Of a stretch of DNA of 64,000 nucleotides, positions 1 to 63,629 are shown piece by piece. The stretch spans positions 5,077,182 to 5,141,181 of the forward strand of contig NC_087384.1 of the NCBI RefSeq assembly GCF_963675165.1, given 5' to 3'. The stretch is from Halichondria panicea (lineage: Eukaryota > Porifera > Demospongiae > Suberitida > Halichondriidae). The notes beneath the pieces are model-generated. The model saw only the letters and a list, made by a program, of their open reading frames with translations, searched no databases and had not been told where the DNA came from. Position 1 is the stretch's first letter. Each line of letters opens with the position of its first letter. A program made the translations under genes and the position numbers.

Positions 1-2795
1 TTTTTTTTGCAGTTGATCGGTGTAACTGGATGGTCCAGTTTAGCCTATACTTAGCATCATTAGTAGAGACTATTGTGAAGCAGTGTGCACTCAAGTTTCA
101 TATATACAGTACACCACATACATACTGCATGCATTTTCTGGGATGGCCTGATCAGGTTAATGTAACTAGAAGGAAGTTAGTCACTACTATAGATATATAC
201 TGGATTTTGAAACAAAAAGTTGGTGGACTTATGATGGATAAGCAGGCCCTGCCCCTCTAGGTGTATGGTTTCCTCTTTGAAACTCATTGTGAATTCGAGG
301 CCACATAACTATTGAAAATGGTCACCCTTCGTTTCCACATACAAAGTTGTTAGCTTGGTTTTATTTTCACATACAGTGACCTTTTAAACGGTGCAAAGTG
401 GACGACATTGCACTTCCTAGCCTGTTACGTACACTGGAACATAAGATCTATACTGGATTGCTTGAAACACTGGTCAAAAACTGATAGTGACAGAATTAAC
501 AGACTCTTCTTCAAAAAGGCAAGTAATATTATAATTATGTCCATAAGTGCGCATGCAGATTAATTGTGATTGTGATTGTGATGTAAAAATAATCCAAGGT
601 ACGTTTGTAGGAACTTTACTTTTGTGGTATTAAAAAACATGTAGACGTCTATGATGTCATTTTGAACATACGCTTGTAACTTTCCCTGTAAGCCTGAAAG
701 AGTTGTGTGTGTTAAGAATAATTTCATGGGTGACTGCATGCTTACCGGAAACACTACCAGGTCACACCTTCCATCTTTGCATATCATGTTATAACAGATA
801 ATTCTAAAGTAACGGGACTCTCGAAATGTTGTGCTGTATATACGTAAATTTTTTACACACACCTATAGTAACCACAGAATTGATGTACACTTTGTATTTC
901 TACAGATTGACTCTAAATCATGAAAATGAAAACTGCTGTTGGTGCATTCATCTTAATAGTCTTTGTCACCTATCAAAATGTTAACGCCGGTCGTTATGAA
1001 AGACTTGAAGTTTTTTCACAGCACTCTTGCCCTGATTTGGTGAAAACTGGAAAGCTCTACAGGGCTCTACGCCCCGATGAAAACTGTGATAAGAATAGCG
1101 GGTTGGTCCCTAAAGATCCTTCTGCCAAACACAGTGTAGACTCTCATGTTAGCGAAAGAGAAAAAGACACTCAGTATATCTCTTTTTCGACATCTAAAGA
1201 CGTTACCAATAGATATATGAATAAGAAGAAACCTAGGATAGTCGAAGTGCTAGTTAAAGATCTTCCTGAATCTTGTAAGATTATAAACCTGAATGATAAG
1301 AACGTTCGTGACGAGGAAAAGCTTAGTAGTCTATCTATTGAAAACGCATTGAGAGATTGCGAAGTGCTGCTTGATAGTAAGTTTCCCATACCCTGTAAAG
1401 AAATAGATCCCGATGAGGACGACAGTCGACGGCAGTTTAATGAGGAGATGATACTTGCGATTAACAATCCAACATGCTTCAAACTGCTCACTGATTTAAA
1501 GCCCTCTGAAAGGTCGATTGAATGGTCTAAGAACGAGATCACGATCCCTAATCTGCTGAACATCATGTTCCCGAGTGACAAAAGCCGCAAACTGCTGAAT
1601 ACCAAGACTGTCTTCAAAATCAGGAAATTTTGTAAGCCGCTCATGAAAAAGGTTGCAAGATTTGGTTGACAGCATGTATTCTAATCAACTTACTAACTAA
1701 TGGTATATAGCCTAGCTCTAAATTGCATATTATGCAATCTGTTGTGTAATGACTCTACTGAGATTTGCCTATCAATGATCAATGATATCTTCTATGTATA
1801 GGTTGTACTCGTGGCTTATATTAGAGGCAATTTAAAAATAGCAGAAAAGAGCAGAAAAATAGGCAATGTCTTGAGCTGCTACCAAGGCCATTGGGGAGAC
1901 TAGAGAGGGAAAGGCCAATAAAAGTACGTACATAATTATCACACTGATTCCAAGCCATTCTTAGGGTCAGGGCAAAGGCGTATACAGAGTAGACGGCATA
2001 CAACTCATAGAATACGCCCTTGGTCAGGGTTATGGTTAATTATATTAAAAACGGTACAAAAATATTATTAAATTTAAACAGCTTTCTACTGCGTTACAAC
2101 AAAAAAACCATACAGGACCATAACACGAAATGATTTCCACTTTTACTTTAATAACTACGTACACGAACAAATATAATTATATATGTCACCGGTAAATCCG
2201 CTAGTGTGTTCTTAGTTTTAAGAGTGCTTCTCCCAGTAGAGCTGTCACTACATCTTGACCATTGCTTTCCACACTACTATGGAACCAGATCACAAACAGC
2301 TGGAGAGGACTGATCTCAACAGAACGAGATCTCTGGGTGAAAGAGAAAAACATGGCTTACTTTGTTGAGTGTGTAAGAGGGTTACTCAACTTAGGGTTAC
2401 TGTCACAAACGATTAGTATCTTGCAGTTTGCATGTACTTACTGGGTATTTTTCGCTCCCAAAGGTCAAGGAACTCCTCACTGAGTCTGCCAATCAAAGCT
2501 GCGCAAAAAAATACATACATGTAACACAGTCAGTTATGTAAGTCGGCTCACTAAAATGCATTCTATTAATGCATGTATAGGGGTGAATATTATACTGTAA
2601 TATATGTAGCTATTTGACTTGTGAGTATATCATCAAGAGTATATATAAAAACTACCGATACCTCTACACAAAAACTGACAGTGTGCACAAAGTAACGAGA
2701 CATCATGTGAGTATATAACTCACAATTGACGTTTGCGCAAGCTTGCGCATACATTACGTAACGCACAGAATTTGTTAACAGTGAGTAAAGTGCAC
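1..2795 (+). repeat. segmental duplication, copy 1
   Basis: This segment is near-identical to 13638-16350, in the same orientation and about 13.6 kb away. It covers the 5' flank, the secreted-protein gene at 920-1669 and its 3' flank. The window begins inside the copy, so its left limit is unknown. Identity fades near 2795/16350. Copy 1 has a few small indels relative to copy 2, for example it lacks most of the TTAGGG-like run. No other gene is seen in 1-900, where homology to copy 2 is continuous. A conserved AAAAAG/GCAAGT sequence near 515 could be a GC-type donor of a 5'UTR exon that joins the acceptor at 905. Confidence 0.9.
920..1669 (+). CDS. small secreted protein, possible ADP-ribosyltransferase-like fold (copy 1)
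   Basis: An intact single-exon reading frame of 249 residues. It starts with a clear signal peptide: Lys at 2 and 4, a hydrophobic core of about residues 7-17, and an Ala-Gly cleavage site near 23-24. A good acceptor (tttctacag) lies 15 bases before the ATG, so a non-coding first exon probably exists upstream. The mature protein has LYRALRP near residue 47, then YISFSTS near 91, followed by a basic-hydrophobic strand (RIVEVLVKDLP) and a later FNEEM near 175. The order Arg strand, Ser-Thr-Ser strand, Glu recalls the R-S-E arrangement of ADP-ribosyltransferases, but the Glu motif is not canonical, so this is a weak inference. Five to six Cys in the mature part suggest disulphides. It is about 90 percent identical to the copy at 14513-15250. 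No enzymatic function is proven. Confidence 0.7.
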   Translation: MKMKTAVGAFILIVFVTYQNVNAGRYERLEVFSQHSCPDLVKTGKLYRALRPDENCDKNSGLVPKDPSAKHSVDSHVSEREKDTQYISFSTSKDVTNRYMNKKKPRIVEVLVKDLPESCKIINLNDKNVRDEEKLSSLSIENALRDCEVLLDSKFPIPCKEIDPDEDDSRRQFNEEMILAINNPTCFKLLTDLKPSERSIEWSKNEITIPNLLNIMFPSDKSRKLLNTKTVFKIRKFCKPLMKKVARFG

Positions 2796-3057
2796 AAAAT
2801 ATTATCAGCCTCAAGTATAAAGTCATCATTGGCGGTCTGTTATCGAGGCTGAAATAATATCACCCACGCATTACGCATTTTGTGGTTTGCTCTAATTGCA
2901 TTCCAACAGGACAACTCTCAACACGGCAACTTGCCAGTCCCCAGAGCGCAGAGCGAAGGGAGTGGTTTCCAGTCTAAATAATTATAAGACATGCACATGT
3001 ACAGAGTACTGGCTGCACCCACGCAAAACATATGCTAGCCCTAACCATGTACTATTA

Positions 3058-13324: not shown

Positions 13325-14512
13325 AATATAGCTTTACTTTAAATGTTTTCTCAGCATTAAGATATGTCTCACCCACATTCAACATAAGTTTCATGCATGT
13401 CTGCCTTGCAAGGGTTTCACTGCACTCTTTAGCGAACTTCCCGTCTGTATAGTTAGACAAGACGCTGTATTATTATAATAAGTGTCAATTGTCCGATAAC
13501 AATTCAGACAGCCGGCGAACATGTTCTGAATATTAATATTTTGAGTGCCCTCACCATCACAGAAAATGGTTTCCTCTGATTGCTGATATGCTTATACATC
13601 ATTATTGGTTTGTCATTTCTTAAACAGCCTCGTTAATTTTTTTTTGCAGTTGATCGGTATAACTGGATGGTCCAGTTTAGCCTATACTTAGCATCATTAG
13701 TAGAGACTATTGTGAGGCAATGTGCACTCAAGTCAGTACACCACATACATACTGCATGCATTTTCTGGGATGGCCTGATCAGGTTAATGTAACTAGAAGG
13801 AAATTAGTCAATACTATATTGGATTTTGAAACAAAAAGTTGGTGGACTTATGATGGATAAGCAGGTCCTGGCCCCTCTAGGTGTATGGTTTCCTCTTTGA
13901 AACTCATTGTGAATTCTAGGCCACTTAGCTATTGAAAATGGTCACCCCTCGCTTCCATATACAAAGTTGTTAGCTTGGTTTTATTTTCACATACAGTGGC
14001 CTTTTAAACGGTGCAAAGCGGACGACATTGCATTTCCTAGCCTGCTACGTACACTGGAACATAAGAGATATACGGATTGCTTGAAACACTGGTCAAAAAC
14101 TGATAGTGACAGAACAGACCCTTCTTCAAAAAGGCAAGTAATATACCATAACTTTTAAGTGCAAGATTGTGATTGTCATTGTGATGTAAAAATAATCCAA
14201 GGTACTTGTCTACGGTTGTGGTTTGTAGAATTTTGCTTTTATGGTATCAAAAAACATATGTCATTTTGAACATACGCTTGTAACTGTCCCTGTAAGCCTG
14301 TAAGAGTTGTGTTTGTGTTAAGAATAATTTCATGGCCATGGGTGACTGCATGCTTACCGGAAACACTATCAGGTCATGCATGTTATAACAGAAAGTAACG
14401 GTGGATTGTAAGACTCTCGAAAATGTTGTGCTGTATGTATGGACATTTTTTACGCACAGAGTAACCACAGAATTGATGTACACTTTGTATTTCTACAGAT
14501 TGACTCTAAATC

Positions 14513-15250
14513 ATGAAAATGAAAACTGCTGTTGGTGCATTCATCTTAATAGTCTTTGTCACCTATCAAAGTGTTAACGCCGGTCGTTTTGAAAGTGTTG
14601 AAGTTTTTTCACAGCACTCTTGCCCTGATTTGGTGGAAACTGGAAAGCTCTACAGGGCTCTACGCCCCGATGAAAACTGTGATAAGAATAGCGGGTTGGT
14701 CCCTAAAGATCCTTCTGCCAAACACAGTGTAGACTCTCATGTTAGCGAAAGAGAAAAAGACACTCAGTATATCTCTTTGTCGACGTCTAAAGACGTTACC
14801 AATAGATATAAGAATAAGGAGAAACCTAGGATAGTCGAAGTGCTAGTTAAAGATCTTCCTGAATCTTGTAAGATTATAAACCTAAATGATAAGAACGTTC
14901 GTCTGAAGGAAAATCTTAGTAGTCTATCTATTAAGAACGCATTGAGAGATTGCGAAGTGCTGCTTGATAGTAAGTTTCCCATACCCTGTAAAGAAATAGA
15001 TCCCGATGAGGACGACAGTCAACGGCAGTTTAATGAGGAGATGATACTTGCGATTAACAATCCAACATGCTTCAAACTGCTCACTGATTTAAAGGCCTCT
15101 AAACGCCTTGAATGGTCTAAAAACGAGATCACGATCCCTAAACTGCCGAATATCATGTTCCCGAGTGACAAAAGCCGCAAACTCAAAACCGTCTTCAAAA
15201 TCAGGAAATTTTGTAAGCAGCTCATGAAAAAATTTCCAAAATTTGGTTGA
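14513..15250 (+). CDS. small secreted protein, possible ADP-ribosyltransferase-like fold (copy 2)
   Basis: 245 residues, intact, with the same signal peptide and tttctacag acceptor 15 bases upstream of the ATG as copy 1. It keeps LYRALRP, the Ser-Thr-Ser strand (YISLSTS) and FNEEM. It differs from copy 1 by scattered substitutions and by two short deletions near the C-terminus. Reading frame, Cys positions and signal peptide are preserved in both copies, so both are probably expressed or only recently duplicated. Function is not recognised with confidence; an ADP-ribosyltransferase-like fold is a guess from motif order. Confidence 0.7.
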   Translation: MKMKTAVGAFILIVFVTYQSVNAGRFESVEVFSQHSCPDLVETGKLYRALRPDENCDKNSGLVPKDPSAKHSVDSHVSEREKDTQYISLSTSKDVTNRYKNKEKPRIVEVLVKDLPESCKIINLNDKNVRLKENLSSLSIKNALRDCEVLLDSKFPIPCKEIDPDEDDSQRQFNEEMILAINNPTCFKLLTDLKASKRLEWSKNEITIPKLPNIMFPSDKSRKLKTVFKIRKFCKQLMKKFPKFG

Positions 15251-15531
15251 CAGCATGTATTCTAATCAACTTACTAACTGATGGTATATAGCCTAGCTCT
15301 AAATTGCACATTATTCAATCTGTTGTGTACTGACTCTACTGAGATTTGCCTATCAATGATCAATGATATCTTCTATGTATAGATAGGTTGTACTCGTGGC
15401 TTATATTAGAGGGAATTTGAAAAGAGCAGGCAATGTCTTGAGCTACGTATATACCAAGGCCAGTGGGGAGACTAGAGAGGGAAAGGCCAATAAAAGTACG
15501 TACATAATTATCACACTGATTCCAAGACATT

Positions 15532-15563
15532 CTTAGGGTTAGGGTCAGGGTTAGGGTTAATTA
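15532..15563 (+). repeat. short TTAGGG-like tract
   Basis: ttagggttagggtcagggttagggtta contains about four telomere-like hexamers. The matching place in copy 1 (1960-2035) has only scattered TTAGGG/TCAGGG pieces separated by unrelated sequence. Confidence 0.7.
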
Positions 15564-16380
15564 TACAGTCAATTTAAAAATGGTACACACGAATATTATT
15601 GAACAGATATGAATTTAAACAGCTTTCTACTGCGTTACAATAAAAAAACTATATACAGGACCATAACACGAAATGATTTCCACTTTTACTTAATAATTAC
15701 GTACACGAACAAATATAATTATAATTATGTCACCGATAAATCCGCTAGTGTGTTCTTAGTTTTAAGAGTGCTTCTCCCAGTAGAGCTGTCACTACATCTT
15801 GACCATTGCTTTCCACACTATGGAACCAGATCACAAACAGCTGGAGAGGACTGATCTCAACAGAACGAGATCTCTGGGTGGAAGAGAAAAGCATGACTTA
15901 CTTTAAGTGTGTGGGAGGGTTAGGGTTACAATCTGTTACAAACGATTATTATCTTGCAGTTTGAAACAATTGCATGTACTTACTGGGTACTTTCGCTCCC
16001 AAAGGTCAAGGAACTCCTCACCGAGTCTGCCAAGCAATCGAAGCTGCACACAAAAAATACATACATTTAACACATGCAGTCAGTCATCAGTAAATCGGCT
16101 CACTAAGATGCAATTATAGCATTATAAAGTGAGCTCCACGTCAACTATTTGACTTGTGATTATCATCAAGAGTATAATATAAGAAGAGAAAGTATCGAAC
16201 TACCGATATCTATACACAAAAACTATGCACAAAGTAACGTGACATCCTGTCAATTGCACGTGAGCAACTCGCAATTGACTTTTGCGCAAGCTTGCGTGCA
16301 TACACTACGCAACGCACAGAATTTGTTAACAATGAGTAAAGAGTGCAAATGAAGAGGGTCAACTCGACTATTGTCTCTAT

Positions 16381-19300
16381 TTAGATGATTTTTGTGAAGA
16401 GACCGTCTCCTATATTGTGCGGTGAGCAGCTCTGAATGTTGAATGCAAACAACTGGTAGAATCAGATGTAATTACCACACCCCTAAAAACGTCACGGTTA
16501 GGAGATTACTACAATACTTATCACGTGCGAGTCATGTTACTTTGTGCAAAGTTTTTGTGTAGAGGTAATCGGTAGTTTGACACTCTTATCTTCATCATGA
16601 GCATACACAAACTATACGTATATGTATTACTATAATGATAGAACTTACAGTTATTGCCGTTAACTGATTGTTGAGAGGAGCTAGATGAGAGTTTGGGATA
16701 CTGATAACTCTCGGCTCATCGATGGTGATTGACTCCAGGGTTGTTAGTCCTAGCTGTTTCTGACGTAAGAACTGGAGGATGTTGACTATCAGTTGGCACA
16801 GTTCTTTGGCACCATCAACCAATGTCACAAAGTGACCCACCTCTTGACAAAGAGCAGCCCCTACAAATCAACCAATACAATTAATACACAACCCTGTGCC
16901 TTGTCTTTGCAATGTAAATGCATAAGGTGCTACGATAGGCAGGCACACGCGAACACTATACAGGACTAATTAAATTAATATTGTCAAATCAATAGAAACA
17001 CTAGCCTCGGTGCCATGCAGGCCGTTTTTTCCGCTATGTCGAAAATAGGTGTTAGCACATCATGTGCTGCACAATTAACCAGAATCTGGGTAATCGTACT
17101 ACTACGAACGTAAAAGATTTAGTAAATTATACCATAAACTAACAATTAGTCTGTTCACTATAATATCATGACTGCAGCTGTGGCTTCCATATGCCCTCTA
17201 TTGTGTTGGTTGAGAAGGCTTCAGCCTTGCACACTAGTCCGAAACCAATCATGCAGAAGAGGCTCTCATCTATACCTCAGGCCACGATGGTTGTATGACC
17301 AGGTTGTCTTCACAAGCACCATAAAAAGCACAAAGACTTGCCATAGCCTGACGGAACCAAGCTCAGACATCCCGACCATACAACCATCGTAGAGGTAGAT
17401 GAGAGCCTCTTCTGGCTTTAGACTATAGTGTGTACTAAGCCTTCTAGACCAACGCAATCAAAAGCATAAGCCACATGCAGCTAAGCTTCTTCACCATAAG
17501 ATAGAAAAAAAGAAGAGATTCCCCAGCACGAATAAGCACATGTGCACCATCACCCATGCAGGCCATTATTTTTCTCCCTTTCATTCCTTAGAGATAGGAA
17601 CGAAGCTATGGAAACACATATTATTTGGGTAGTACATGAATTAATATGTTGTCATAATAGAAGACATACATGTACAAAGTACTGGCTGCACCCACTCAGT
17701 CTCACTGTGTGCATACCACAAAAAAATACCTGACCAAAACCTATGCTAACTCTAACACATGTACTACTACATGTACATTTCAATGCACAGTGCTTGAACG
17801 TCTCCTAACGGCTATACCCCTGAATAAATGGCTAACCCCTACTGCACTGGCCATGTATACCCGGCCCAAATAAACAATTGATGTATGTAAAACAACCAGG
17901 CCCTCATAAATTAAATTAAAAGGCACTGCTGTAGCTGAAAGTTTGCTCCCCAAAAGTGTCCGTTCTAAATGTATAGGGGGGGGTTCCCACTCTCTATGCT
18001 CTCAACTCACCATTGCCTTGGCGAATACGAACATCAAAGAAGCACTGATGCAGTCTGTGATTTGTAGCTCCCAATAAACATCCACTCTATGGAAACAATA
18101 GATGTAATTTCACACATTGATAAACGAAGACTTACTTGACCAGTACTGGGGTTACTATCACACACCACAGCTCCAGTGCTTCGTGCTTCATTCTCAGCAC
18201 CAGGACCAAACAATGCCCTGAACAGTTTCGAACCATCACAATCACTGGATGGCGGGCGAATATAGTGGAACATGTAAGTAGGGTTCGTATCAGGATCACT
18301 GGAGGATCTCGAGTGCACAACCATTTCCTATATATGAAAAAACAAATGTACATGTAAAAATCAGTGTACATCAGTATGTATACTGTAACAGTAAATCATT
18401 AACTGATTTGAAGGGTAGGTATAACACAAAGATGTAGCTAGGCAGTGGCGGATCCAGGAAAAATGAAAATCGCATACAGTGCGAACTTTTTTGGGGGTTA
18501 CGCCCACTTCCGGTCATACATGACTAGGCCAGGGGAAGTCCTATAATAGACTTGCGTAGAGTTAGCTAGAGCTAGCTAGCTGCCACGAACAGTCAACTAG
18601 CTAGCCTAGGCTAACCTGAACACTCCTTTGGCAGTTGACACATCAAAACAACAGGTACAATCATTGAATCAAATTACAATAGCTACAAAAACTGATTAAT
18701 AGCTAGCTGGTAGGTAGCTGTAGTAAAGCCGGCCACAATAGCTATAGACTGAAAGGGGGGGGGGATCCGTGGCACCCTGGAATCTCCCCCTGGATCCGCC
18801 ACTGTGGTATACATACAGTACACTCACCGATGGCAGTGACTGGTCAACTATTTGAGTTGGAGCACCATGCAAACAATGGCCATTTATCACTTTTAAAAAC
18901 TAATTATTAAACATAGGGAATGAATTATGCGACTCACATATACCTCTTCAAAATATCCAGGGTAACAGCTGACGAAAGGCTTGTAGACAGATGGCATACC
19001 TTTATCTTCTTCAACTTGTTTGAGTACAACCTGATGAACAATACATTATATGCTGTACTGATACATTTTCACATGAGATCTTTGAGCACCAAAGTCATTA
19101 ACAACTATAGCTGTGTACATTACATTATGGCATACAATACCTTTTTCTGTACATCTTTCCCAGCCAAATTGAGTTTTTCAGGAGGCCGAACCAATTGTGA
19201 TGCAGTAGCATGCCCCGTTGTTCCACATTTCTCTTGAGCTTCGACCAAAGTACATATTCGTTTAGTTTCAAGTGGCACGCGTTCAGGTGGACGTAGTTGG

Positions 19301-22300
19301 TGTGGTAAAATACGATTGCCCACAGAGATTAATATTGTTGCTCTTGCATTCAAAGAGTTTGATAAGTGCAAGCTGTGACCTTCATCTTCTTCATATTGTT
19401 TGTGTTCGGCTGATACGACCTGTATGAACGATACACGAATCATGTACTGATGATATACACATTAATTCTTGCCACATAAATCAATATGAGTTACGGAAAT
19501 AAATAGATATCGCGTGAACAACTAATATTATGCATAATTTATACGATAGTGTTTACTTGCACATATATACAATATGACTTACCTCTCCGTAACAGCTGAC
19601 GAAAGGCTTGTAGACAGAGGGCATACTTTCATCTTCTTCAACTTGTTTGAGTACAACCTGATGAACAATACGTATACCTTATATACTGTACTGATACATT
19701 TTCACATGAGATCTTTGAGCACCAAAGTCATTAATAACTATAGCTGTGTACATTACATTATGGCATACAATACCTTTTTCTGTACATCTTTCCCAGCCAA
19801 ATTGAGTTTTTCAGGAGGCCGAACCAATTGTGATGCAGTGGCATGCCCCGTTGTTCCACATTTCTCTTGAGCTTCGACCAAAGTACATATTCGTTTAGTT
19901 TCAAGTGGCACGCGTTCGGGTGGACGTAGTTGGTGTGGTAAAATACGATTGCCCACAGAGATTAATATTGTTGCTCCTGCATTCAAAGAGTTTGATAAGT
20001 GCAAGCTGTGACCTTCATCTTCTTTATCTTGTTTGTGTTCGGCTGATACGACCTGTATGAACGATACACGAATCATGTACTGATGATATACACATTAATT
20101 CTTGCCACATAAATCAATATGAGTTACGGAAATAAATAGATATCGCGTGAACAACTAATATTATGCATAATTTATACGACAGTGTTTACTTGCACATATA
20201 TACAATATGACTTACCTCTCCGTAACAGCTGACGAAAGGCTTGTAGACAGAGGGCATACTTTCATCTTCTTCAACTTGTTTGAGTACAACCTGATGAACA
20301 ATACGTATACCTTATATACTGTACTGATACATTTTCACATGAGATCTTTGAGCACCAAAGTCATTAATAACTATAGCTGTGTACATTACATTATGGCACC
20401 TTTTTCTGTGCATCTTTCCCAGTCAAATTGAGTTTTTCAGGAGGCCGGACCAATTGTGATGCAGTAGCATGCCCCGTCGGCGTTGTTCCACATTTCTCTT
20501 GAGCTTCGACCAAAGTACATATTCGTTTAGTTTCAAGTGGCACGCGTTCAGGTGGACGTAGTTGGTGTGGTGAAATACGACTGCCCACAGAGATTAATAT
20601 TGTTGCTCCTGCATTCAAAGAGTTTGATAAGTGCAAGCTGTGACCTTTATCTTCTTCATTTTGTTTGTGTTCGGCTGATACGACCTGTATGAACGATACA
20701 CGAATCATGTACTGATACATAATTCTTGCCACATAAATTATGACTTTTGAGTTACGGGAATAACATTGAACGGTGCTTGGATAAATAGATACCGCGTGAA
20801 CATGCAACTAATATTATGCATATACGATAGTGTTTACTTGCACATATACAATGTGACTTACATACCTCTCCGTAACAGCTGACGAAAGGCTTGTAGACAG
20901 AGAGCATACCTTCATCTTCTTTAACTCGTTCGAGTACAACCTGTGATGAATGATACATATACACTGCGTGCATGATCATCAGTAACTATATAATAGTTAG
21001 ACACTGTTTAGGAAGGTTATACATGATTTAGAAGCCCAAAGGGCTGGTTGTAGTATCCCGAACACAGTGAGGGTTCTACTAGCCCTGAGGACTTCTAAAT
21101 CATGTAGAAACTTCCTAAACAGTGTCTAAGCATTTTAGATCATAGCAACCATGAGTATTTAGCCAATCAGATTTGATTGAATGTTCTTATCTAATCTTTG
21201 CTACATGATTTTTTAAGTGAAGTATATGATTTTCTAAGTTGGATAGAACACTTCCTTTAGCCAATCAAATTGCAGTATTTATGGCAAACATTCTAAAGCT
21301 GTATAGCTATAGTTACTGATGTATAGCTATAGTTACTGTTTCCTTACAGTGAAACCAAGTACCTTTTTTTGCACATCTTTGGAGGCTTGTTCATTATCAC
21401 TACACTCATCTTCGGTAGAACTCTCACTTGAAATATAATTGTTTTTATTTTCGTCATCATCTCTTCCTCCGCTACCACCACACCCACTGGCACTTGCACT
21501 GTTTCTATTTGATGAAGATGAGGTAGAGTGAGATCCTGTTTGGGAAGAGGACCCGCCGTCATGTTTACCAGTAGTAGAGTCTTTGTTTCCATTGTTCCCA
21601 TTGTTCCCATTGCAGCTCAGTATTTGGGGGCTACCTTTTTTCCTGCTAAGAGTCTTGATGTGACATAGGGATCGTTCGTTTGTAGACTTCTCCGGGTCGA
21701 CAATTAGTCTCACTCTGTCATCTTCCTCAGCTTGTTTCTCAGTTGATTGTTTCTTTCTTTTTTTTCGGCGCACAGCTAATTGTTCTCCATTATGACTAGA
21801 AGTATCAGAATCGTTATAGTCGAGAGCTACATCACTACCGGTATAACTTTTTTTTCTCTCCTTTTGTTGCCAACTCTGAGTTTTTGTTGTGGGGATGGGT
21901 GCGTGGTTACCTTTGGAAGATTGAGCGGCTTCTTCAACAATAGTGATGTTATTCACAGCCAGCTGCTGCTGACGTTTGTGCCTTGATTTTTGTTTATTGC
22001 GTTGCTTGGGTCGCTGTGGTTGAAAGAAAAACTTACAAAATGCCTAAATCATGCAGGGATGGTGAAGGGGTTAGCATGCAACATTACCTTTTTAAAACAA
22101 GGATAGACACATGGCTTGATGGCAGAGGGCATAACTTTATCTTCTTTAACTAGTTCGCAAGGGGCTGATACGACCTGTGTATCATTTGTGATGAATAATA
22201 CACATGCAGGCTACTCACACAGTGAGATTCCTACTACGTATTAACTTACAGTGATGTCATGTGACTGTTTATCCACATCTTCGGAGGCTTCATCGCTATC

Positions 22301-25300
22301 ACTAGACTCTTCTTCTTCTTCTTCTAGAGAAATATCTACATTTGATATGCGTTTGTTATTATTCTTATCGTCATTATCTCTTCCTCCGCTACCACCACAC
22401 CCACTGGCCATTGTACTGTTTCTATTTGATGAAGATGAGGTAGAGTGAGATTCTGTTTGGGAAGAGGACCCACCGTCATGTTTACCAGTAGTAGAGTCTT
22501 TTTTCTCATTGTTCCCATTGCAGCTCAGTATTTGGGGGCTGCTGCTAGGAGTCTTGATGTGACATAGGGATTGTTCGTTTGTAGGCTTCTCCGGGTCGAC
22601 ATTTTCCTCACTTTGTTTCAGAAGTTTCCCAGTTAATTGTATTTTGTTATGCTTCACATGACAGCTTTTTTCTATACTTGCAGTTGCTTTGCTGCCACAA
22701 GAAGTATCTTGCAGATTTGCATACTTGACAGTGTGAATCCATTTAAGGGTAAATTTCTCACTTGCTGCATGGGTCCGTTTGAAAGTAAGTTCCACATTTA
22801 TAACGTGGGCCCTTTTGGAGGTCAGTTCAGTGCATTTGGGGGTAAGTTCCAGACTCGCAGCGTGGGTCCATTCGAGGGTAAGTTCCAGACTTGCAGCGTG
22901 GGTCCATTTGGGGGTAAGTTCCAGGCTCGCAGCGTGGGTCCATTTAGGGGTAAGTTCCAGGCTCGCAGTGTGGGTCCACCTGGGGGTAAGTTCCAGGCTC
23001 GCAGCGTGGGTCCATTTAGGGGTAAATTCCTCACTCGCAACGTGGGTCCATTTGGGGGTAAGTTCCTCACTCGCAATGTGGGTCCATTTGGGGGTAAATT
23101 CCTCACTCGCAGCGTGGGTCCATTTGGGGGTAAGTTCCTCACTCGCAGTGTGGGTCCATTTAGAGGTAAGTTCTTCACTCGCAGCAGGGGTACATTTAGT
23201 GGTAAGTTCCTCATTCGCAGCTTGGATGCATTTGGGGGTAAGTTTCTCACTCGCAGCGTGGGTCCATTTGGGAGTAAGTTTCTCACTCGCAGCGTGGGTC
23301 CATTTGGGAGTAAGTTTCTCATTCGCAACCTGGTTCGATTTGGGGGTAAGTTCCTCATTCGCAACCTGGTTCGATTTGGGGGTAAGTTCCTCATTCGCAA
23401 CCTGGTTTGATTTGGGGGTAATTTCCTCATTCGCAACCTGGTTCGATTTGGGGGTAAGTTCTTCACTCGCAGCGGGGGTGCCATTGAGGGTAAGTTCCAC
23501 ACTTGCAGCGTGGTTAGACTTGGGGGTAGGTTCCTCACTCGCAGCGTAGTTAGAGTCCACACTCGCACACTTGAAGGTCAGTTCCTCACTTGCAGCTTGA
23601 GTGCATTTGAGGGTAAGTTTCTCAATCGCAACGTGGGTCCATTTGGGGGTAAGTTCCTCACTCGCAGCGTGGGTCCATTTGGGGGTAAGTTTCTCACTTG
23701 CAACGTGGGTCCATTTGGGGGTAAGTTCCTCACTCGCAGTGTGGGTCCATTTGGAGGTAAGTTCCTCACTCACAGCGGGGGTACATTTGGTGGTCAGTTC
23801 CTCATTCGCAGTTTGGGTGCATTTGGGGGTAACTTCCTCACTCGCAACGTGGGTCCATTTGGGGGTAAGCTCCTCACTCGCAACGTGGGTCCATTTGGGG
23901 GTAAGTTCCTCTATTGCAGTGTGGGTCCATTTGGAGGTAAGTTCCTCACTCGCAGCGGGGGTACATTTGGTGGTCAGTTCCTCATTCGCAACTTGGGTGC
24001 ATTTGGAGGTAAGTTTCTCATTCGCAGCGTGGGTCCATTTGGGAGTAAGTTTCTCATTCACAACCTGGTTTGATTTGGGGGTAAATTCCTCACTCGCAAC
24101 GTGGGTCCATTTGGGAGTAAGTTCTTCACTCGCAGCGGTGGTACATTTGGGGGTAGGTTCCTCCCTCGCAGCGTAGTTAGAGTCCACACTCGCACACTTG
24201 AAGGTCAGTTCATCACTCGCAGCTTGGGTGCATTTGGGGGTAAGTTCCTCTCTCGCAACGTGGGTCCATTTGGGGGTAAGTTCCTCACTCACAACGTAGG
24301 TCCATTTGGGGGTAAGTTCCTCACTCGCAGTGTGGGTCCATTTAGAGGTAAGTTCCTCACTCGCAGCGGGGGTACATTTAGTGGTCAGTTCCTCATTCAC
24401 AGCTTGGGTGCATTTGAGGCTAAGTTCCTCACTCGCAGCGTGGTTCCTCTTGGGGGTAGGTTCCTCACTCGCAGCGTAGTTAGAGTCCACACTCGCACAC
24501 TTGGAGGTCAGTTCCTCACTCGCAGGTAGGGTGCATTTGGGGGTAAGGTGCTCACTCGCAACGTGGGTCCATTTCGGGGCAAGTTCCTCATTTGCAGCAT
24601 GGGTCCATTTGGGGGTAAGTTCCTCACTCGCAGCGTGGGTCCATTTAGAGGTAAAGTCATCACTCGCAGCGGGGGTACATTTGGTGGTCAGCTCCTCATT
24701 TGCAGCATGGGTCCATTTAGAGGTAAAGTCATCACTCGCAGCGGGGGTACATTTGGTGGTAAGTTCCTCACTCGCAGCGTGGGTCCAATTAGAGGTAAAT
24801 TCATCACTCGCAGCGGGGGTACATTTGGTGGTCAGTTCCTCATTTGCAGCTTGGGTGCATTTGGGGGTAAGTTTCTCACTCGCAACGTGGGTCCATTTGG
24901 GAGTAAGTTTCTCATTCGCAACCTGGTTCGATTTGGGGGTAAGTTCCTCACTCGCAATGTGGGTACATTTGGAAGTAAGTTCTTCACTTTCAGCGGGGGT
25001 GCATTTGGGGGTAAGTTTCTCACTCGCAGCGTAGTTAGAGTCCACATTCGCACACTTGAGGGTAAGTTTCTCACTCGCAACGTGGGTGCATTTGAGGGTA
25101 AGTTCCTCACTCGCAGCGTGGGTCCATTTGGGGGTAAGTTTCTCACTCGCAGTGTGGGTCCATTTAGAGATAAGTTCCTCACTCTCAGCGGGGGCACATT
25201 TGGTGATCAGTTCCTCATTCGCAGATTGGGTGCATTTGGGGGTAAGGTCGTCACTCGCAACGTGCGTGCAATTGAGGGTAAGTTCCACACTTGCAGCGTG

Positions 25301-28300
25301 GTTAGACTTGGGGGTAGGTTCCTCACTCGCAGCGTAGTTAGAGTCCACACTCGCACACTTGAGGGTAAGTTTCTCACTCGCAACGTGGGTGCATTTGAGG
25401 GTAAGTTCCTCACTCGCAGCGTGGGTCCATTTGGGGGTAAGTTTCTCACTCGCAGTGTGGGTCCATTTAGAGGTCAGTTCCTCACTTGCAGCTTGAGTGC
25501 ATTTGGGGGTAAGGTCGTCACTCGCAACGTGGGTCCATTTGGGGGCAAGTTTCTCACTCGCAGCGTGGGTCCATTTGGAGGTAAGTTCCTCACTCGCAGT
25601 GTGGGTCCATTTAGAGGTAAGTTCCTCACTCGCAGCGAGGGTACATTTGGTGGTCAGTTCCTCATTCGCAGCTTGGATGCATTTGGGGGTAAGTTTCTCA
25701 CTCGCAGCGTGGGTCCATTTGGGAGTAAGTTTCTCACTCGCAGCGTGGGTCCATTTGGGAGTAAGTTTCTCATTCGCAACCTGGTTCGATTTGGGGGTAA
25801 GTTCCTCATTCGCAACCTGGTTCGATTTGGGGGTAAGTTCCTCATTCGCAACCTGGTTTGATTTGGGGGTAAGTTCTTCACTCGCAGCGGGGGTGCCATT
25901 GAGGGTAAGTTCCACACTTGCAGCGTGGTTAGACTTGGGGGTAGGTTCCTCACTCTCAGCGTAGTTAGAGTCCACACTCGCACACTTGAAGGTCAGTTCC
26001 TCACTTGCAGCTTGAGTGCATTTGAGGGTAACTTTCTCAATCGCAACGTGGGTCCATTTGGGGGTAAGTTCCTCACTCACAACGTAGGTCCATTTGGGGG
26101 TAAGTTCCTCACTCGCAGTGTGGGTCCATTTAGAGGTAAGTTCCTCACTCGCAGCGGGGGTACATTTAGTGGTCAGTTCCTCATTCACAGCTTGGGTGCA
26201 TTTGAGGGTAAGTTCCTCATTCGCAGCGTGGTTCCACTTGGGGGTAGGTTCCTCACTCACAGCGTAGTTAGAGTCCACACTCGCACACTTGGAGGTCAGT
26301 TCCTCACTCGCAGGTAGGGTGCATTTGGGGGTAAGGTGCTCACTCGCAACGTGGGTCCATTTCAGGGCAAGTTCCTCATTTGCAGCATGGGTCAATTTGG
26401 GGGTAAGTTCCTCACTCGCAGCGTGGGTCCATTTAGAGGTAAAGTCATCACTCGCAGCGGGGGTACATTTGGTGGTCAGCTCCTCATTTGCAGCATGGGT
26501 CCATTTAGAGGTAAAGTCATCACTCGCAGCGGGGGTACATTTGGTGGTAAGTTCCTCACTCGCAGCGTGGGTCCAATTAGAGGTAAATTCATCACTCGCA
26601 GCGGGGGTACATTTGGTGGTCAGTTCCTCATTTGCAGCTTGGGTGCATTTGGGGGTAAGTTTCTCACTCGCAACGTGGGTCCATTTGGGAGTAAGTTTCT
26701 CATTCGCAACCTGGTTCGATTTGGGGGTAAGTTCCTCACTCGCAATGTGGGTACATTTGGAAGTAAGTTCTTCACTTTCAGCGGGGGTGCATTTGGGGGT
26801 AAGTTTCTCACTCGCAGCGTAGTTAGAGTCCACATTCCCACACTTGAGGGTAAGTTTCTCACTCGCAACGTGGGTGCATTTGAGGGTAAGTTCCTCACTC
26901 GCAGCGTGGGTCCATTTGGGGGTAAGTTTCTCACTCGCAGTGTGGGTCCATTTAGAGGTAAGTTCCTCACTCTCAGCGGGGGCACATTTGGTGATCAGTT
27001 CCTCATTCGCAGCTTGGGTGCATTTGGGGGTAAGGTCGTCACTCGCAACGTGGGTGCAATTGAGGGTAAGTTCCACACTTGCAGCGTGGTTAGACTTGGG
27101 GGTAGGTTCCTCACTCGCAGCGTAGTTAGAGTCCACACTCGCACACTTGAGGGTAAGTTTCTCACTCGCAACGTGGGTGCATTTGAGGGTAAGTTCCTCA
27201 CTCGCAGCGTGGGTCCATTTGGGGGTAAGTTTCTCACTCGCAGTGTGGGTCCATTTAGAGGTCAGTTCCTCACTTGCAGCTTGGGTGCATTTGGGGGTAA
27301 GGTCGTCACTCGCAACGTGGGTCCATTTGGGGGTAAGTTCCCCACTCGCAGCTTGGGTGCATTTAGGGGTAAGGTCGTCACTCGCAACGTGGGTCCATTT
27401 GGGGGCAAGTTTCTCACTCGCAGCGTGGGTCCATTTGGAGGTAAGTTCCCCACTCGCAGCGTGGGTCCATTTGGAGGTAAGTTCCCCACTCACAGCATGG
27501 GTCCATTTGGGGGCAAGTTCTTCACTCGCAGCGTGGGTCAATTTGGGGGAAAGTTCCCCACTCGCAGCGTGGGTCCATTTGGGAGCAAGTTCCCCACTCG
27601 CAGCGTGGGTCCATTTGGGGGCAAGTTCCCAACTTGCAGCGTGGGTCCATTTGGGGGCAAGTTCCCCACTCGCAGCGTGGGTCCATTTGGGGGCAAGTTC
27701 CCCACTCGCAGCGTGGGTCCATTTGGGGGCAAGTTCCCCACTCGCAGCGTGGGTCCATTTGGGGGCAAGTTCCCCACTCGCAGCGTGGGTCCATTTGGGG
27801 GCAAGTTCCCCACTCGCAGCGTGGGTCCATTTGGGGGCAAATTCCTCACTCGCAGCGTGGGTGCATTTGGGGGAAAGTTCCCCACTCGCAGCGTGGGTCC
27901 ATTTGGGGGTAAGTTCCTCATTCGTAGCAGGAAATTTGCCGATAAGGCGGGTCCATTTGTGATTAAGTTCCTCGCTTGCAGTGTAGATCAATTTGGGAGT
28001 AAGTTCCTCATTTGTAGCAGGCAATTTGGTAATAAAGCGGGTCCATTTGTGGTTAAGCTCCTCCTCACCTACAGCAGCATGGGTTGATTTGGCAGTGGGT
28101 CTTCTAGTGACGCTGCTTAGCTCAGCATTTTTAACAAGTTTTTCACAATCTTCAGAGGTTGATTGATGTGTGGGGGCAGTGTTGGAGTTGTCATCAGTAT
28201 ATGTGGCCGTATGTTGCTTTAAGTTCATAACGTAGTTAAAAATAGGCTCCGCAGGGCCCACGTTTGTGTTCATATCTTCTTGCTGATTATCAAAGGGTTC

Positions 28301-30616
28301 TTTGATTTTCTTCGGCTTTAGTTTAGCGTTCCTCGGTAGTTTAGTTTTACTCATTCGTTTGGTGTTGATCATCTCCTACGGTAAAGGAAACATGTTAACA
28401 TCAACCAATAGAAAGACATTAGCTTACCATGAGTTCATTAACGATATTGGTAATGGGATCAGTTTGTAAACTTTTGTTTAGCATGTCCATGATCTGGTTA
28501 GGTGCCCCCTGCAGCTTTTCTAGAAGAGATGGATTATAGATAGTGAGTGTAGACTCTTTTCTTGTATAATAATTCTGTACGCAACTCTGTACACAGGAGG
28601 CGTTTAGCCAGACACAGGAGGTATTCAGCCAGACCTACGTCACAAATACTCATGCACTGGTAGTGATAGTTATTTTCCTAATTTAAGACTTCACAGTTTA
28701 TACAACAGCATGTGGTTTTGACGTAGGCTGGACAGAACTCCTACTATGATTGAACGGTTGTATAAGTGGAGTTGTGTACTCTTCCTAATGAATTCTTAGT
28801 GTTCATACTTAACTTACCAATGATGGATGATACTTCATGAAAAGGCAGTGGATGTTCAGAAAGAGTTGTTCGATCTACAATAATTATTTGTACCACATGT
28901 ATACATACATAATATACGTACCATATGAATGTTTCTTACTTTATTGTCCCAACTAAGGGATCATTAATCATGAATTAGTTTGTATGAATGCAGGCCGAAT
29001 GATAATGTTCATATTCAAGCTATAAAACCGGCTGTCTTTATTTCCTTTGTATACTACATGAAGGGTACAGAATATAGCCAAAGAGATCCGTGGTGGATAC
29101 TATTATTTCTGCATCACTTTTCTACAGCTACAGAGGCCATGGATGCATGGAGATACAAAAGCTCTTAGACTATGACAAGGTCTATACATAACTTAGAGCC
29201 ATAATTATTTAAAGTGATCGAGCACTGCAAACTCTATGAAAATGTTATAGTCCTGCCCCATAGTGATACCTCGTTCAATTTGATCCATGCTTAAATGGGA
29301 CACTATCATCAGCTAAGAAGGTAGAAAAACTGAAGCAGAAGTTGTGTAGCTAGCTTTGCCAAAATTGTTGTACTTTTCTTGCGTGGGCGAAACACTATAT
29401 CCTAATCTTAAGCGGACGTCAGTTTTATACTTACCATAGATGTCCTTGAACAATCCATAGACCAGTGTTAAGTAATCTGTTCGGAACTCTACAGTAATGA
29501 TAATATATATAGTTATCTTACAATGCCAAATGTTGTATTTGTACTGTACATACCTTTATTACTGACATCGACCAAAATACCTGTGTAAGTAATACGTATT
29601 TAAGAATTATCGATAAGGAGTGAAACGTATGTATATACCCTCTGTTAGAGTTAGAAATAATTTTTCAAGACAGTCTCCTTGTATCCAGCCATTACAGTAC
29701 ACACGCATGCATGTACCAACAAAGTCTTACACCATGTTTTAACTTCAACACCAAGATATGTACATGCATGCGCAAGCTTACACAACATGCATCACTATAT
29801 CTTTAATTTGCCAGCGAAACGTACCCTCAGTTTTAGTCTGAGTTCCCAAGTCATTTGTCAAGAAAGTCTCCTTGACTGCATGATAAATAAAATAAAATGT
29901 TAACACAATAGTATCAAAACACCCTCAACAGGGTACATATATACATCCCTATATCTCTGTGAATATTGCCATACGAAAATGATTTATGGAAAGATATGAA
30001 TTTCAAGTGAACACCATGCAGTGGGAGAGGTATATACGAAACAAAAATATTGCCGTCAGCAAATATATACGATGTATACTACGTATGTAATAATGTAGCA
30101 CAAATCTATGACGGTTAGCATGGATGTTATATGTATATATGCGACTTACTGTCAGCACAAGTGTTCTCACTCTCTTGGTGATGTGCCTCTTTCTCTCCTG
30201 AATAACAAATAATGAGTGTATATAGCTGCTTTTAGCTGTATAATGTATATAGTATAATGCATGAGTGCATGGTCATAAGGTTTCTGCTGCTTTTAGCAGG
30301 CTTTCGATTGAGGAAGTGTGGCTTGGGATCGAGCTGTAAACATTGTAGTAAAATCATTATGATAGGACAATTATTCATGAGTGGTCATTTCTGTTGCTCA
30401 ACACATTCCACAAGGTAAGCCATTGTTACTCCTATACTATACGCCTGCATACACACCAATTACCCACTATCCTATATAACCATTAAATTAAAGATAACTT
30501 CTTATACTTTCAACGGCAATTAATGCATGGATTATAGTTAGTAAAGTAAGTAAAAATATTAATCAAGTTCACCTTCCGCGGTAGGATTGAATTCATTACT
30601 TTCTAGGAGCAGGAAA
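16381..30616 (-). CDS. giant 12-residue-repeat protein, 5' end not found
   Basis: Twenty-three phase-compatible exons: 30616-30573, 30197-30150, 29875-29825, 29677-29639, 29580-29554, 29488-29435, 28874-28818, 28519-28428, 28375-22250, 22174-22088, 22013-21363, 20940-20866, 20684-20400, 20290-20216, 20052-19774, 19657-19583, 19419-19141, 19030-18938, 18899-18828, 18327-18136, 18086-18011, 16860-16649, 16452-16381. They read through 9,061 nt, about 3,019 aa to a TAA. The N-terminal part is small phase-1 exons. The 6,126-nt exon 9 holds about 145-150 copies of a 12-residue unit like LTPKWTHAASEE, then a Ser/Gly/Asn-rich and an acidic tail. Exon 11 is basic, with RRKKRKKQ and KQKSRHKRQQQ, likely nuclear-localisation signals. 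A 25-residue and a 93-residue exon alternate three times, then a roughly 200-residue Cys-containing C-terminal region follows. No known domain recognised. Exon 19 uses acceptor attag; the last exon is the least certain. More than one gene is possible, but phase agreement across all joints argues for one. Confidence 0.72.
17204..17456. repeat. imperfect fold-back, about 250 bp
   Basis: Left arm (ttggttgagaaggctt ... cagaagaggctctcatctat ... cgatggttgtatg) recurs inverted on the right (catacaaccatcg ... agatgagagcctcttctg ... aagccttctagaccaa). The spacer is about 80 bp. It lies in the 1.1-kb intron between exons 21 and 22 of the large gene. No coding capacity seen. Confidence 0.75.
18443..18804. 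mobile_element. inverted-repeat element with CAGTGGCGGATCCAGG ends
   Basis: The termini CAGTGGCGGATCCAGG / CCTGGATCCGCCACTG are perfect 16-bp inverted copies, 362 bp apart, in an intron of the large gene. Such CAGTGGCG-type ends are typical of short non-autonomous DNA transposons. No target duplication was evident by eye. Confidence 0.78.
18938..20940 (-). repeat. tandemly multiplied exon pair
   Basis: A genomic unit of about 633 bp is repeated. It contains one 75-nt exon (VVLKQVEEDESMPSVYKP start) and one 279-285-nt exon (VVSAEHKQ start, GKDVQKK end), both in phase 0. Units 19.58-20.05 kb and 20.22-20.68 kb are nearly identical including introns. The 18.94-19.42 kb unit differs more, and a further short exon stands at 20866-20940. 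The exons at 22088-22174 and 21363-22013 look like older, diverged members: same VVSA...KEDK start and same KDVQKK end. Confidence 0.88.
20996..21129. mobile_element. 134-bp hairpin MITE
   Basis: Ends TTAGACACTGTTTAGGAAG and CTTCCTAAACAGTGTCTAA are inverted copies, and the pairing continues through TACATGATTTAGAAG. It lies in an intron of the large gene. Superfamily not assigned. Confidence 0.8.
22740..28090 (-). repeat. 36-bp coding minisatellite with higher-order repeats
   Basis: The unit is 36 bp and in frame with the large gene. On the plus strand it reads tgggtccatttggggg plus taagttcctcactcgcagcg. The 27.4-27.9 kb end is homogeneous (GELAPKWTHAAS over and over), while the rest is diverse. 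Longer blocks repeat at an offset of about 1,788 bp (24.5-25.45 vs 26.29-27.24 kb) and about 2,415 bp (23.1-23.57 vs 25.5-25.98 kb). All units remain open, with no stop or frameshift over 5.3 kb. Confidence 0.93.
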
Positions 30617-46233: not shown

Positions 46234-46947
46234 CTCTGGCTAGGCTAGGCTCTGTAAACTGTAACTGTATGATACACATGTACGTGATAGGAGAGGTTGT
46301 GTGTGGAGCTAGCTAGCTAGCTCGGGAGGGGCATACTAATTAGCAGGAAAGTGTGTGGGTGGTAGGCATGTCATTAACCAATGAGACCCAGCCTTCGAAA
46401 CCATGCTCTCATTTAAGATGGCGGACGGTCCACTGCTGTGATGAGAAGACATTTTGCAGTGTATCTCCTCGCAAAGACGTTTGGATCGGTCGCCAGTGGC
46501 TGTTTGGAGCATATTTGAGCACTCTGTATGTCGTATGGTGATTGACATTGACTTTTAGCAACATTTGGAGCTTAAAAATTGGCAAAACTAATTGCTATGG
46601 ATTTTTGTTGCTGATTTATTTGCAGGTAAGCTTTTAAGCTTGATTACATGCATACTACATACTGTATGCTTTGAAAAAGCCTTGCGTCAGTGAATTGATG
46701 ATATTTTTTGCACTGCATAATTTTTGACAAAGCCCCATATTTTTGCTGGTTAGACTTTCCTTATTGTGTGTGCATCTACTTAACAATATTATTATTGCGC
46801 AGTGCACATGTCTTGTGAAGGATGTGTATGTAGCTGCAAATGTGTCGATTTTATGTTTTGTAATTTGCCACTGCAATGTGATGTGCACTAAATGGAAATC
46901 ATTCATATTTTCATACACACACCACACACAGTATTTAGATTTGAATT
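46234..46947. promoter_or_regulatory. putative bidirectional promoter, RAP1GDS1 / SRCAP
   Basis: The two start codons are divergent and 714 bp apart. A donor at about 46626 (tttgcag/gtaagc) and the acceptor before 46931 (cacacag) mark a non-coding first exon and short first intron of SRCAP. This leaves under 400 bp for both transcription starts. No TATA box is obvious. A CTAGCTAGCTAGCT tract lies at 46309-46323. This is inferred from geometry; no promoter motif was proven. Confidence 0.55.

Positions 46948-63629
<16,682 letters not shown>

What the first reader, a model, noticed from the sequence alone, without database searches (positions are those of the whole stretch)
16381..30616. A ~3,000-residue repeat protein gene with no recognised domain
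Twenty-three exons across 14 kb join in phase into one frame of 3,019 codons. A multi-kilobase minisatellite exon sits between small unique exons. Two basic NLS-like stretches, Ser/Gly/Asn-rich and acidic tails, multiplied exons and a Cys-containing C-terminal region make an architecture I cannot match to any family. It is the strongest candidate here for something undescribed.
Basis: partly seen in the sequence, partly recalled or inferred. Interest (0 to 1): 0.85.

Follow-up and report, generated by a model that had tools for sequence, protein, structure and literature searches.

The report
Giant repeat-expanded gene, lineage-specific family
This is very probably a real multi-exon animal gene for a protein of about 3,000 residues with a stretched 12-residue repeat and no known domain, and it belongs to a small, fast-changing gene family whose other members lie in a cluster on another contig and have grown different repeats.

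Summary
On the minus strand, 22 exons with 21 GT-AG introns join into one frame of 3,019 codons plus a stop. Two details change. The 3' end is at 15745, not 16381: the last exons (16043-15984, 15873-15745) are conserved in paralogs. The 5' end is open: no in-frame ATG before residue 104.

The gene has relatives. Two close paralogs on contig C6 keep the C-terminal exons and, at exons 18-21, the splice sites. Four more distant loci in the same cluster carry a related last exon; their link to this gene is weaker. One C6 locus holds the equivalent of the giant exon as a 270-residue open frame, so roughly 1,750 residues were gained here (or, less likely, lost there). Neighbouring frames grew a 48-bp repeat, a 33-bp repeat or a seven-fold exon. 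C-terminal dN/dS is 0.40 and 0.64. The array's frame has 0 stops in 1,778 codons, an equally vulnerable frame 33.

Pfam and PDB give no credible domain. Best reading: a lineage-specific family of long, probably disordered and nuclear proteins with a constant C-terminal module and an expanding middle. Function is inferred, not shown.

The parts
30573..30616 (-). Exon 1 of the chain (5' boundary is a splice acceptor; not the true start of the gene)
   Evidence: frame FLLLESNEFNPTAE joins onward; first in-frame Met is residue 104; no upstream ATG exon with a good donor in 6 kb
28428..30197 (-). Exons 2-7 (30197-30150, 29875-29825, 29580-29554, 29488-29435, 28874-28818, 28519-28428): short N-terminal exons, exons 2-6 all phase 1-1
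   Evidence: matches to exon 3 (40%) and exon 7 (56%) on C6 upstream of the exon 8 equivalent; exon 7 acceptor kept there, donor not clear; exons 1, 2 and 4-6 had no match recognised as a counterpart
22250..28375 (-). Exon 8, 6,126 nt: unique head, about 145 units of a 12-residue repeat (LTPKWTHAASEE type), Ser/Gly/Asn-rich and acidic tail
   Evidence: equivalent at C6:4836004-4835195, a 270-residue frame with head and tail and no 36-bp array, with AG before and GT after it
22729..28061 (-). 36-bp coding minisatellite (approximate limits), with a 1,788-bp offset duplication 99.7% identical over its best 600 bp
   Evidence: 28 of 28 matches in the genome search lie in this exon (E <= 0.001, search may miss repeats)
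21363..22174 (-). Exon 9 (22174-22088) and exon 10 (22013-21363; basic NLS-like stretches, Ser/Gly/Asn-rich, acidic)
   Evidence: exon 10 matches C6 at 4857318-4856860, 4856505-4856245, 4835761-4835246, 4831533-4831228 and 4830912-4830709, and the tail of exon 8 at 69%
18944..20940 (-). Exons 11-17: three tandem copies of an exon pair plus a seventh exon, all phase 0-0; exons 12, 14 and 16 carry six RPPE motifs
18136..18327 (-). Exon 18 (FHYIRPPS)
   Evidence: 44-56% identical in paralogs A and B, same splice sites
18011..18086 (-). Exon 19
   Evidence: 63% identical in both close paralogs, same splice sites
16649..16860 (-). Exon 20, best conserved exon of the C-terminal module
   Evidence: 71-75% identical in paralogs, same splice sites, dN/dS 0.25 and 0.46
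15984..16043 (-).
   Evidence: 70-77% identical in two paralogs; acceptor and donor conserved in both
15745..15873 (-).
   Evidence: 66-72% identical in A and B with the stop codon at the same place; related last exons at four more C6 loci
2204..2335 (-). Second copy of the last exon, inside a segmental duplication (window 1-2798 against 13638-16349)

Best explanation
It is one real protein-coding gene, a member, away from the main cluster, of a small family whose other copies lie on one strand of contig C6. The protein has three zones: short N-terminal exons, a middle that changes by duplication of phase-symmetric exons and by coding minisatellites, and a constant C-terminal module of 222 residues encoded by exons 18-22. 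Shown by sequence: open gene structure, two close paralogs with the same splice sites at exons 18-21, a C6 equivalent of exon 8 without the array, dN/dS below 1 in the C-terminal module. Inferred: the protein is mostly disordered, enters the nucleus through its basic stretches, and works as a long multivalent tether or scaffold. In that picture the C-terminal module and the repeated RPPE motifs bind partners, and the 12-residue array is a length-variable spacer with little constraint on its own sequence.
For: Structure: 22 exons, 21 GT-AG introns, 3,019 codons. Family: last-exon copies at C6 4826983 and 4854037 and, more distant, at 4844031, 4819288, 4810383 and 4789515, all on the minus strand. 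Splice sites of exons 18, 19, 20 and 21 and the stop of exon 22 kept in paralogs A and B. Selection: dN/dS 0.40 (A) and 0.64 (B) over 201 codons of exons 18, 19, 20 and 22, and 0.41 between A and B over 203 codons; no significance test was made. Expansion: a 270-residue C6 frame matches head and tail of exon 8; the array was found nowhere else. Frame open: 0 stops against 33. Other repeats in the cluster: five copies of a 48-bp unit and seven of a 33-bp unit, seven copies of one exon. RPPE-type motifs: 7 in this protein, 8 in loci A and B, 1 elsewhere on the C6 minus strand, 0 in plus-strand frames (the pattern was written after seeing the motifs, so the control is weak).
Against: No transcript, no true start codon, no evidence on localisation. 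Exon limits were set by hand. In the array non-synonymous changes are as common as synonymous ones (48 of 80 possible types against 13 of 23). dN/dS against paralog B is only mildly below 1 for exon 22 (0.85) and exon 18 (0.79). The four distant members are tied to this gene only through member 4844 kb, which matches exons 21 and 22 at 46% and 39% (E 0.006 and 1e-4); its exon 20 was aligned by me (19% identical). That the 270-residue frame belongs to the same gene as the C-terminal exons of member A, 8 kb away, is assumed. The single-sequence fold of exon 20 is poor (mean pLDDT 57.7). Disorder, nuclear role and scaffold rest on composition.
Confidence: 0.5

Rival explanations
1. Real gene, but the array is a neutral passenger: a replication or recombination accident in a tolerant exon, with no function of its own; the working part is the C-terminal module only.
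For: Synonymous and non-synonymous variant types occur in the same proportion in the array; a recent duplication is 99.7% identical over 600 bp; neighbouring family frames expanded unrelated units.
Against: The frame is free of stops over 1,778 codons while an equally vulnerable frame has 33, so at least the frame seems to be kept.
Confidence: 0.3
2. The 15.7-30.6 kb stretch holds two genes, or alternative transcripts, split near 22 kb or 19 kb, and the single 3,019-codon frame is a product of joining. (Odds raised from 0.12 to 0.15 on checking, because the exon limits were set by hand and the C6 equivalent of exon 8 is assigned to member A only by position.)
For: No RNA data; exon 10 and the tail of exon 8 are copies of one another, which could mark an old gene duplication; the start is not found.
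Against: Same order of the matching exons in paralog A (7, 8, 10, 18-22) and paralog B (tail of 8, 9 or 17 type, 10, 18-22), same splice sites at exons 18-21.
Confidence: 0.15
3. It is a secreted or matrix protein, and the array is an extracellular structural repeat.
For: Long low-complexity repeats are common in such proteins (recalled); the 5' end, where a signal peptide would be, is unknown; the array holds 54 Cys.
Against: Basic NLS-like stretches at residues 146, 2195 and 2277 and acidic runs.
Confidence: 0.12
4. Non-coding minisatellite in an intron; the long open frame is a by-product of a unit without stop codons.
For: Other frames of the array are also open over long stretches, up to 582 codons antisense.
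Against: Head and tail of the same open frame are joined in one open frame at C6; the 12-residue unit is read in one frame from end to end; 0 stops against 33.
Confidence: 0.04

Closest known systems
Coding minisatellites in genes, such as the Prdm9 zinc-finger array (PMC3890296; seen only as title and start of abstract in the listing)
   Same: A tandem array of a unit that is a whole number of codons inside one exon, fast changing.
   Different: There each unit folds into a zinc finger; here the 12-residue unit has no known fold and the array is about 145 units long.
Long repeat proteins with length-variable spacers (mucins, involucrin, filaggrin; recalled, no call)
   Same: A long low-complexity repeat between unique ends.
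   Different: No signal peptide shown; basic and acidic stretches and RPPE motifs; different ends.
Paralogs A (4827 kb) and B (4854 kb) on contig C6 of the same genome
   Same: C-terminal exons 18-22, splice sites of exons 18-21, Ser/Gly/Asn-rich exons, multiplied exons, RPPE-type motifs.
   Different: No 36-bp array; other expanded repeats or exons.

Membership tests
INO2 bHLH domain (PF23179), the best Pfam match of exon 8 | The 74-position helix-loop-helix domain | tested here: not met
   whole-protein score 73.7 (cut-off 23.4) comes with 4 short stretches; the best covers 23 residues (profile 8-30 of 74). Taken as a repeat artefact.
Death-domain-like adaptor (my own early idea for exons 20-22) | Match to a death-fold profile or structure | tested here: not met
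   no death-fold family or structure among the matches listed up to E 10; a distant fold could be missed by sequence search
Coding minisatellite (kind, not a homology family) | Tandem array inside a coding exon, unit a multiple of three, frame open | tested here: met
   (coding is inferred from frame and paralogs, no RNA)
Coding minisatellite (kind, not a homology family) | Copy number differs between individuals | not testable with these tools
   only one assembly is held
C6 cluster family | C-terminal exons 18-22 with the same intron positions | tested here: met
   paralogs A and B:
C6 cluster family, distant branch (4844, 4819, 4810, 4789 kb) | Same C-terminal module | tested here: inconclusive
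   member 4844 kb matches exons 21 and 22 only weakly; three other loci match member 4844 kb, two of them in exon 20 and 22 types, the 4789 kb locus in the last exons only
Any family of bacteria, archaea or viruses | A relative of the C-terminal module | tested here: not met
   (profile A3): 91 and 160 pattern matches, none confirmed at E <= 1e-3

The most novel reading that the evidence does not exclude
A previously undescribed animal gene family of giant multivalent nuclear scaffold proteins, in which an unknown C-terminal fold is kept constant while each copy independently builds a different spacer from minisatellites or phase-symmetric exon duplications.
Probability: 0.2. Interest if true: 0.6.

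Novelty: new member of a known kind. Interest (0 to 1): 0.38.

Why it matters
The genome holds what looks like the same exon with and without the expansion, and neighbouring family members with unrelated repeats. That would let one test whether long repeats in lineage-specific proteins are selected for length or are tolerated accidents. If the C-terminal module proves to have a new fold, it would also add a family to the unannotated part of animal proteomes.

Tried and rejected
Death-domain idea for the C-terminal exons: no support in Pfam or PDB. INO2 bHLH and tRNA ligase kinase matches of the array (both above their cut-offs) are taken as repeat artefacts: best stretches of 23 and 22 residues. 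Weak Pfam matches below the cut-offs (ApeI-like, AVR-Pik_HID, PH_19; Nup54_C, Hint, PAP2_C, cut-offs not shown there; THP2, DUF7595, MDN1_4th) were not used. Structure prediction of exon 20 alone gave mean pLDDT 57.7, too low for a fold search, so none was run. Upstream first exon: none found. In one search the flanks I had set for exon 8 of member A, exon 7 of member A and exon 22 of member B were not at splice sites; on a second look AG lies a few bases away for exon 8 and exon 22 and inside the stretch for exon 7, whose donor stays unclear. Literature: four searches gave nothing on this family; I saw listings and starts of abstracts only and read no paper. A codon test of the array showed no excess of synonymous changes. 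A hypergeometric test for avoided stop-making variant types in the array was not significant (P 0.34 and 0.21). The species was not determined; neighbouring frames (two galectin-like, SNF2, HSA, ion channel) fit an animal.

Full report
What is there. The window lies at contig C8:5077182-5141181 of a 131-Mb genome in 39 contigs. On the minus strand between 30616 and 15745 I joined 22 exons with 21 GT-AG introns into one frame of 3,019 codons and a stop. I set the limits by hand so that splice dinucleotides and phase agree, so the agreement of phases is partly built in. The 5' end is not settled: exon 1 starts at an acceptor, the first in-frame Met is residue 104, and a scan of 6 kb upstream found no ATG exon in the right phase with a donor matching at least 8 of 9 consensus positions.

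The array. Exon 8 is 6,126 nt long. Its repeat part is 1,778 codons with 145 recognisable core positions; of 144 intervals, measured on the translated frame, 131 are 12 residues, the others 17 (9), 7 (2), 11 (1) and 18 (1). The sense frame holds no stop. The +1 frame offers the same number of one-step routes to a stop per codon (0.366 against 0.363) and holds 33 stops; the third frame holds 166, the antisense frames 5, 17 and 172. The frame therefore seems to be kept, with the caution that units are copies and stops are not independent events. Against this, a test on variant types showed no significant avoidance of stop-making changes (2 of 5 types seen, P 0.34; 1 of 5 with types seen at least twice, P 0.21), and 48 of 80 possible non-synonymous and 13 of 23 possible synonymous changes from the consensus unit occur, so no selection on the repeat sequence itself is visible. 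Part of the array is a recent duplication at an offset of 1,788 bp, 99.7% identical over its best 600 bp. A hand-made query of repeat units found 28 matches in the genome at E <= 0.001, all in this exon; that search can miss repeats.

The family. Two C6 loci, here called A (4827 kb) and B (4854 kb), match the C-terminal exons. They keep the splice sites of exons 18, 19 and 20 and the stop of exon 22 and the splice sites of exon 21. Over 201 codons of exons 18, 19, 20 and 22 dN/dS is 0.40 against A and 0.64 against B, and 0.41 between A and B over 203 codons; against this gene single exons range from 0.25 to 0.85; no significance test was made. Four more C6 loci carry a last exon related to that of the 4844 kb member: that member itself and 4819, 4810 and 4789 kb. 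The tie between this branch and the window gene is weaker: exons 21 and 22 match at 46% and 39% (E 0.006 and 1e-4), and exon 20 only in my own alignment (19%). The last exons of these six loci, of the window gene and of a fragment at window 2204-2335 are all on the minus strand.

With and without the array. A C6 frame of 270 residues at 4836004-4835195 matches the head of exon 8 (40% over query residues 2-153) and its tail (40%) and has no 36-bp array, only a few degenerate repeat-like stretches between them. AG precedes and GT follows it. It lies 8 kb upstream of the C-terminal exons of A, on the same strand, and I take it as the same gene; this is not shown. It is the only C6 place that matches the head at E <= 0.05; tail-like frames occur also at 4831 kb and 4857 kb. 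Other parts of the cluster expanded other things: a frame in A has five copies of a 16-residue unit, a frame near 4822 kb has seven copies of an 11-residue unit, A has five copies of another exon-like unit, and B has seven copies of one exon plus a weak partial eighth. That these frames are exons is likely but was not tested one by one. In the window gene an exon pair is present three times; successive copies are 98.6% and 94.9% identical over aligned columns, introns included.

What it may be. Pfam gives nothing credible for the N-terminal part, the multiplied exons or the C-terminal module. The matches of the array to a bHLH and a tRNA ligase model exceed their cut-offs, but their best stretches are 23 and 22 residues of much longer profiles, and I take them as repeat artefacts. 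PDB searches by sequence and by profile gave no match better than E 0.12. Scans of viral contigs and of bacterial and archaeal genomes found no confirmed relative. A single-sequence model of exon 20 shows two helices and a small hairpin at low confidence. The protein has NLS-like stretches at residues 146, 2195 and 2277, six RPPE motifs and one RPPS. With a pattern written after the motifs were seen, the C6 minus strand has nine matches, eight of them in loci A and B, and the plus strand none. A paper search for the words RPPE motif found nothing.

Reading. The gene and its two close paralogs are well supported; function is not. I commit to a long, mostly disordered, probably nuclear scaffold with a constant C-terminal module and a spacer that changes length, at about even odds for the whole statement. 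The main rival is that the array is a tolerated accident. On checking I raised the two-gene rival from 0.12 to 0.15. The finding is unusual in size and useful as a natural comparison, but coding minisatellites and genes with multiplied exons are a known kind. I could not search other animal genomes, so I make no claim that the family is confined to this species; lineage-specific is an inference from the lack of Pfam, PDB, prokaryote and viral matches.

Noticed in passing
window 1-2798 and 13638-16349: Segmental duplication, 84.5% identical, that carries two copies of a small frame, by eye with a signal-peptide-like start (917-1669 and 14510-15250), and the 3' end of the giant gene. The second copy has a weak match to DUF7587 below the cut-off, the first none at E <= 0.01.
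   Followed up: partly
window 29680-29620 (minus strand): By eye, a decayed-looking extra copy of the exon-3 type sequence between exons 3 and 4; similar frames occur several times at C6 4836.4-4838.2 kb.
   Followed up: no
window 54013-60117 (minus strand): Several galectin-like frames in a row; two were tested and both match Gal-bind_lectin.
   Followed up: partly
window 46945-53059 (plus strand): Frames with an HSA domain and an SNF2 domain, perhaps one large chromatin-remodelling gene.
   Followed up: partly
C6:4838967-4840195 (L003): Two very long dinucleotide runs upstream of the exon-8 equivalent of member A.
   Followed up: no
C6:4843998-4849703 (L004) and 4819255-4823083 (L009): A more distant branch in the same cluster with basic stretches, Ser/Thr/Asp-rich frames and, in the 4819 kb member, an acidic C-terminal end.
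   Followed up: partly
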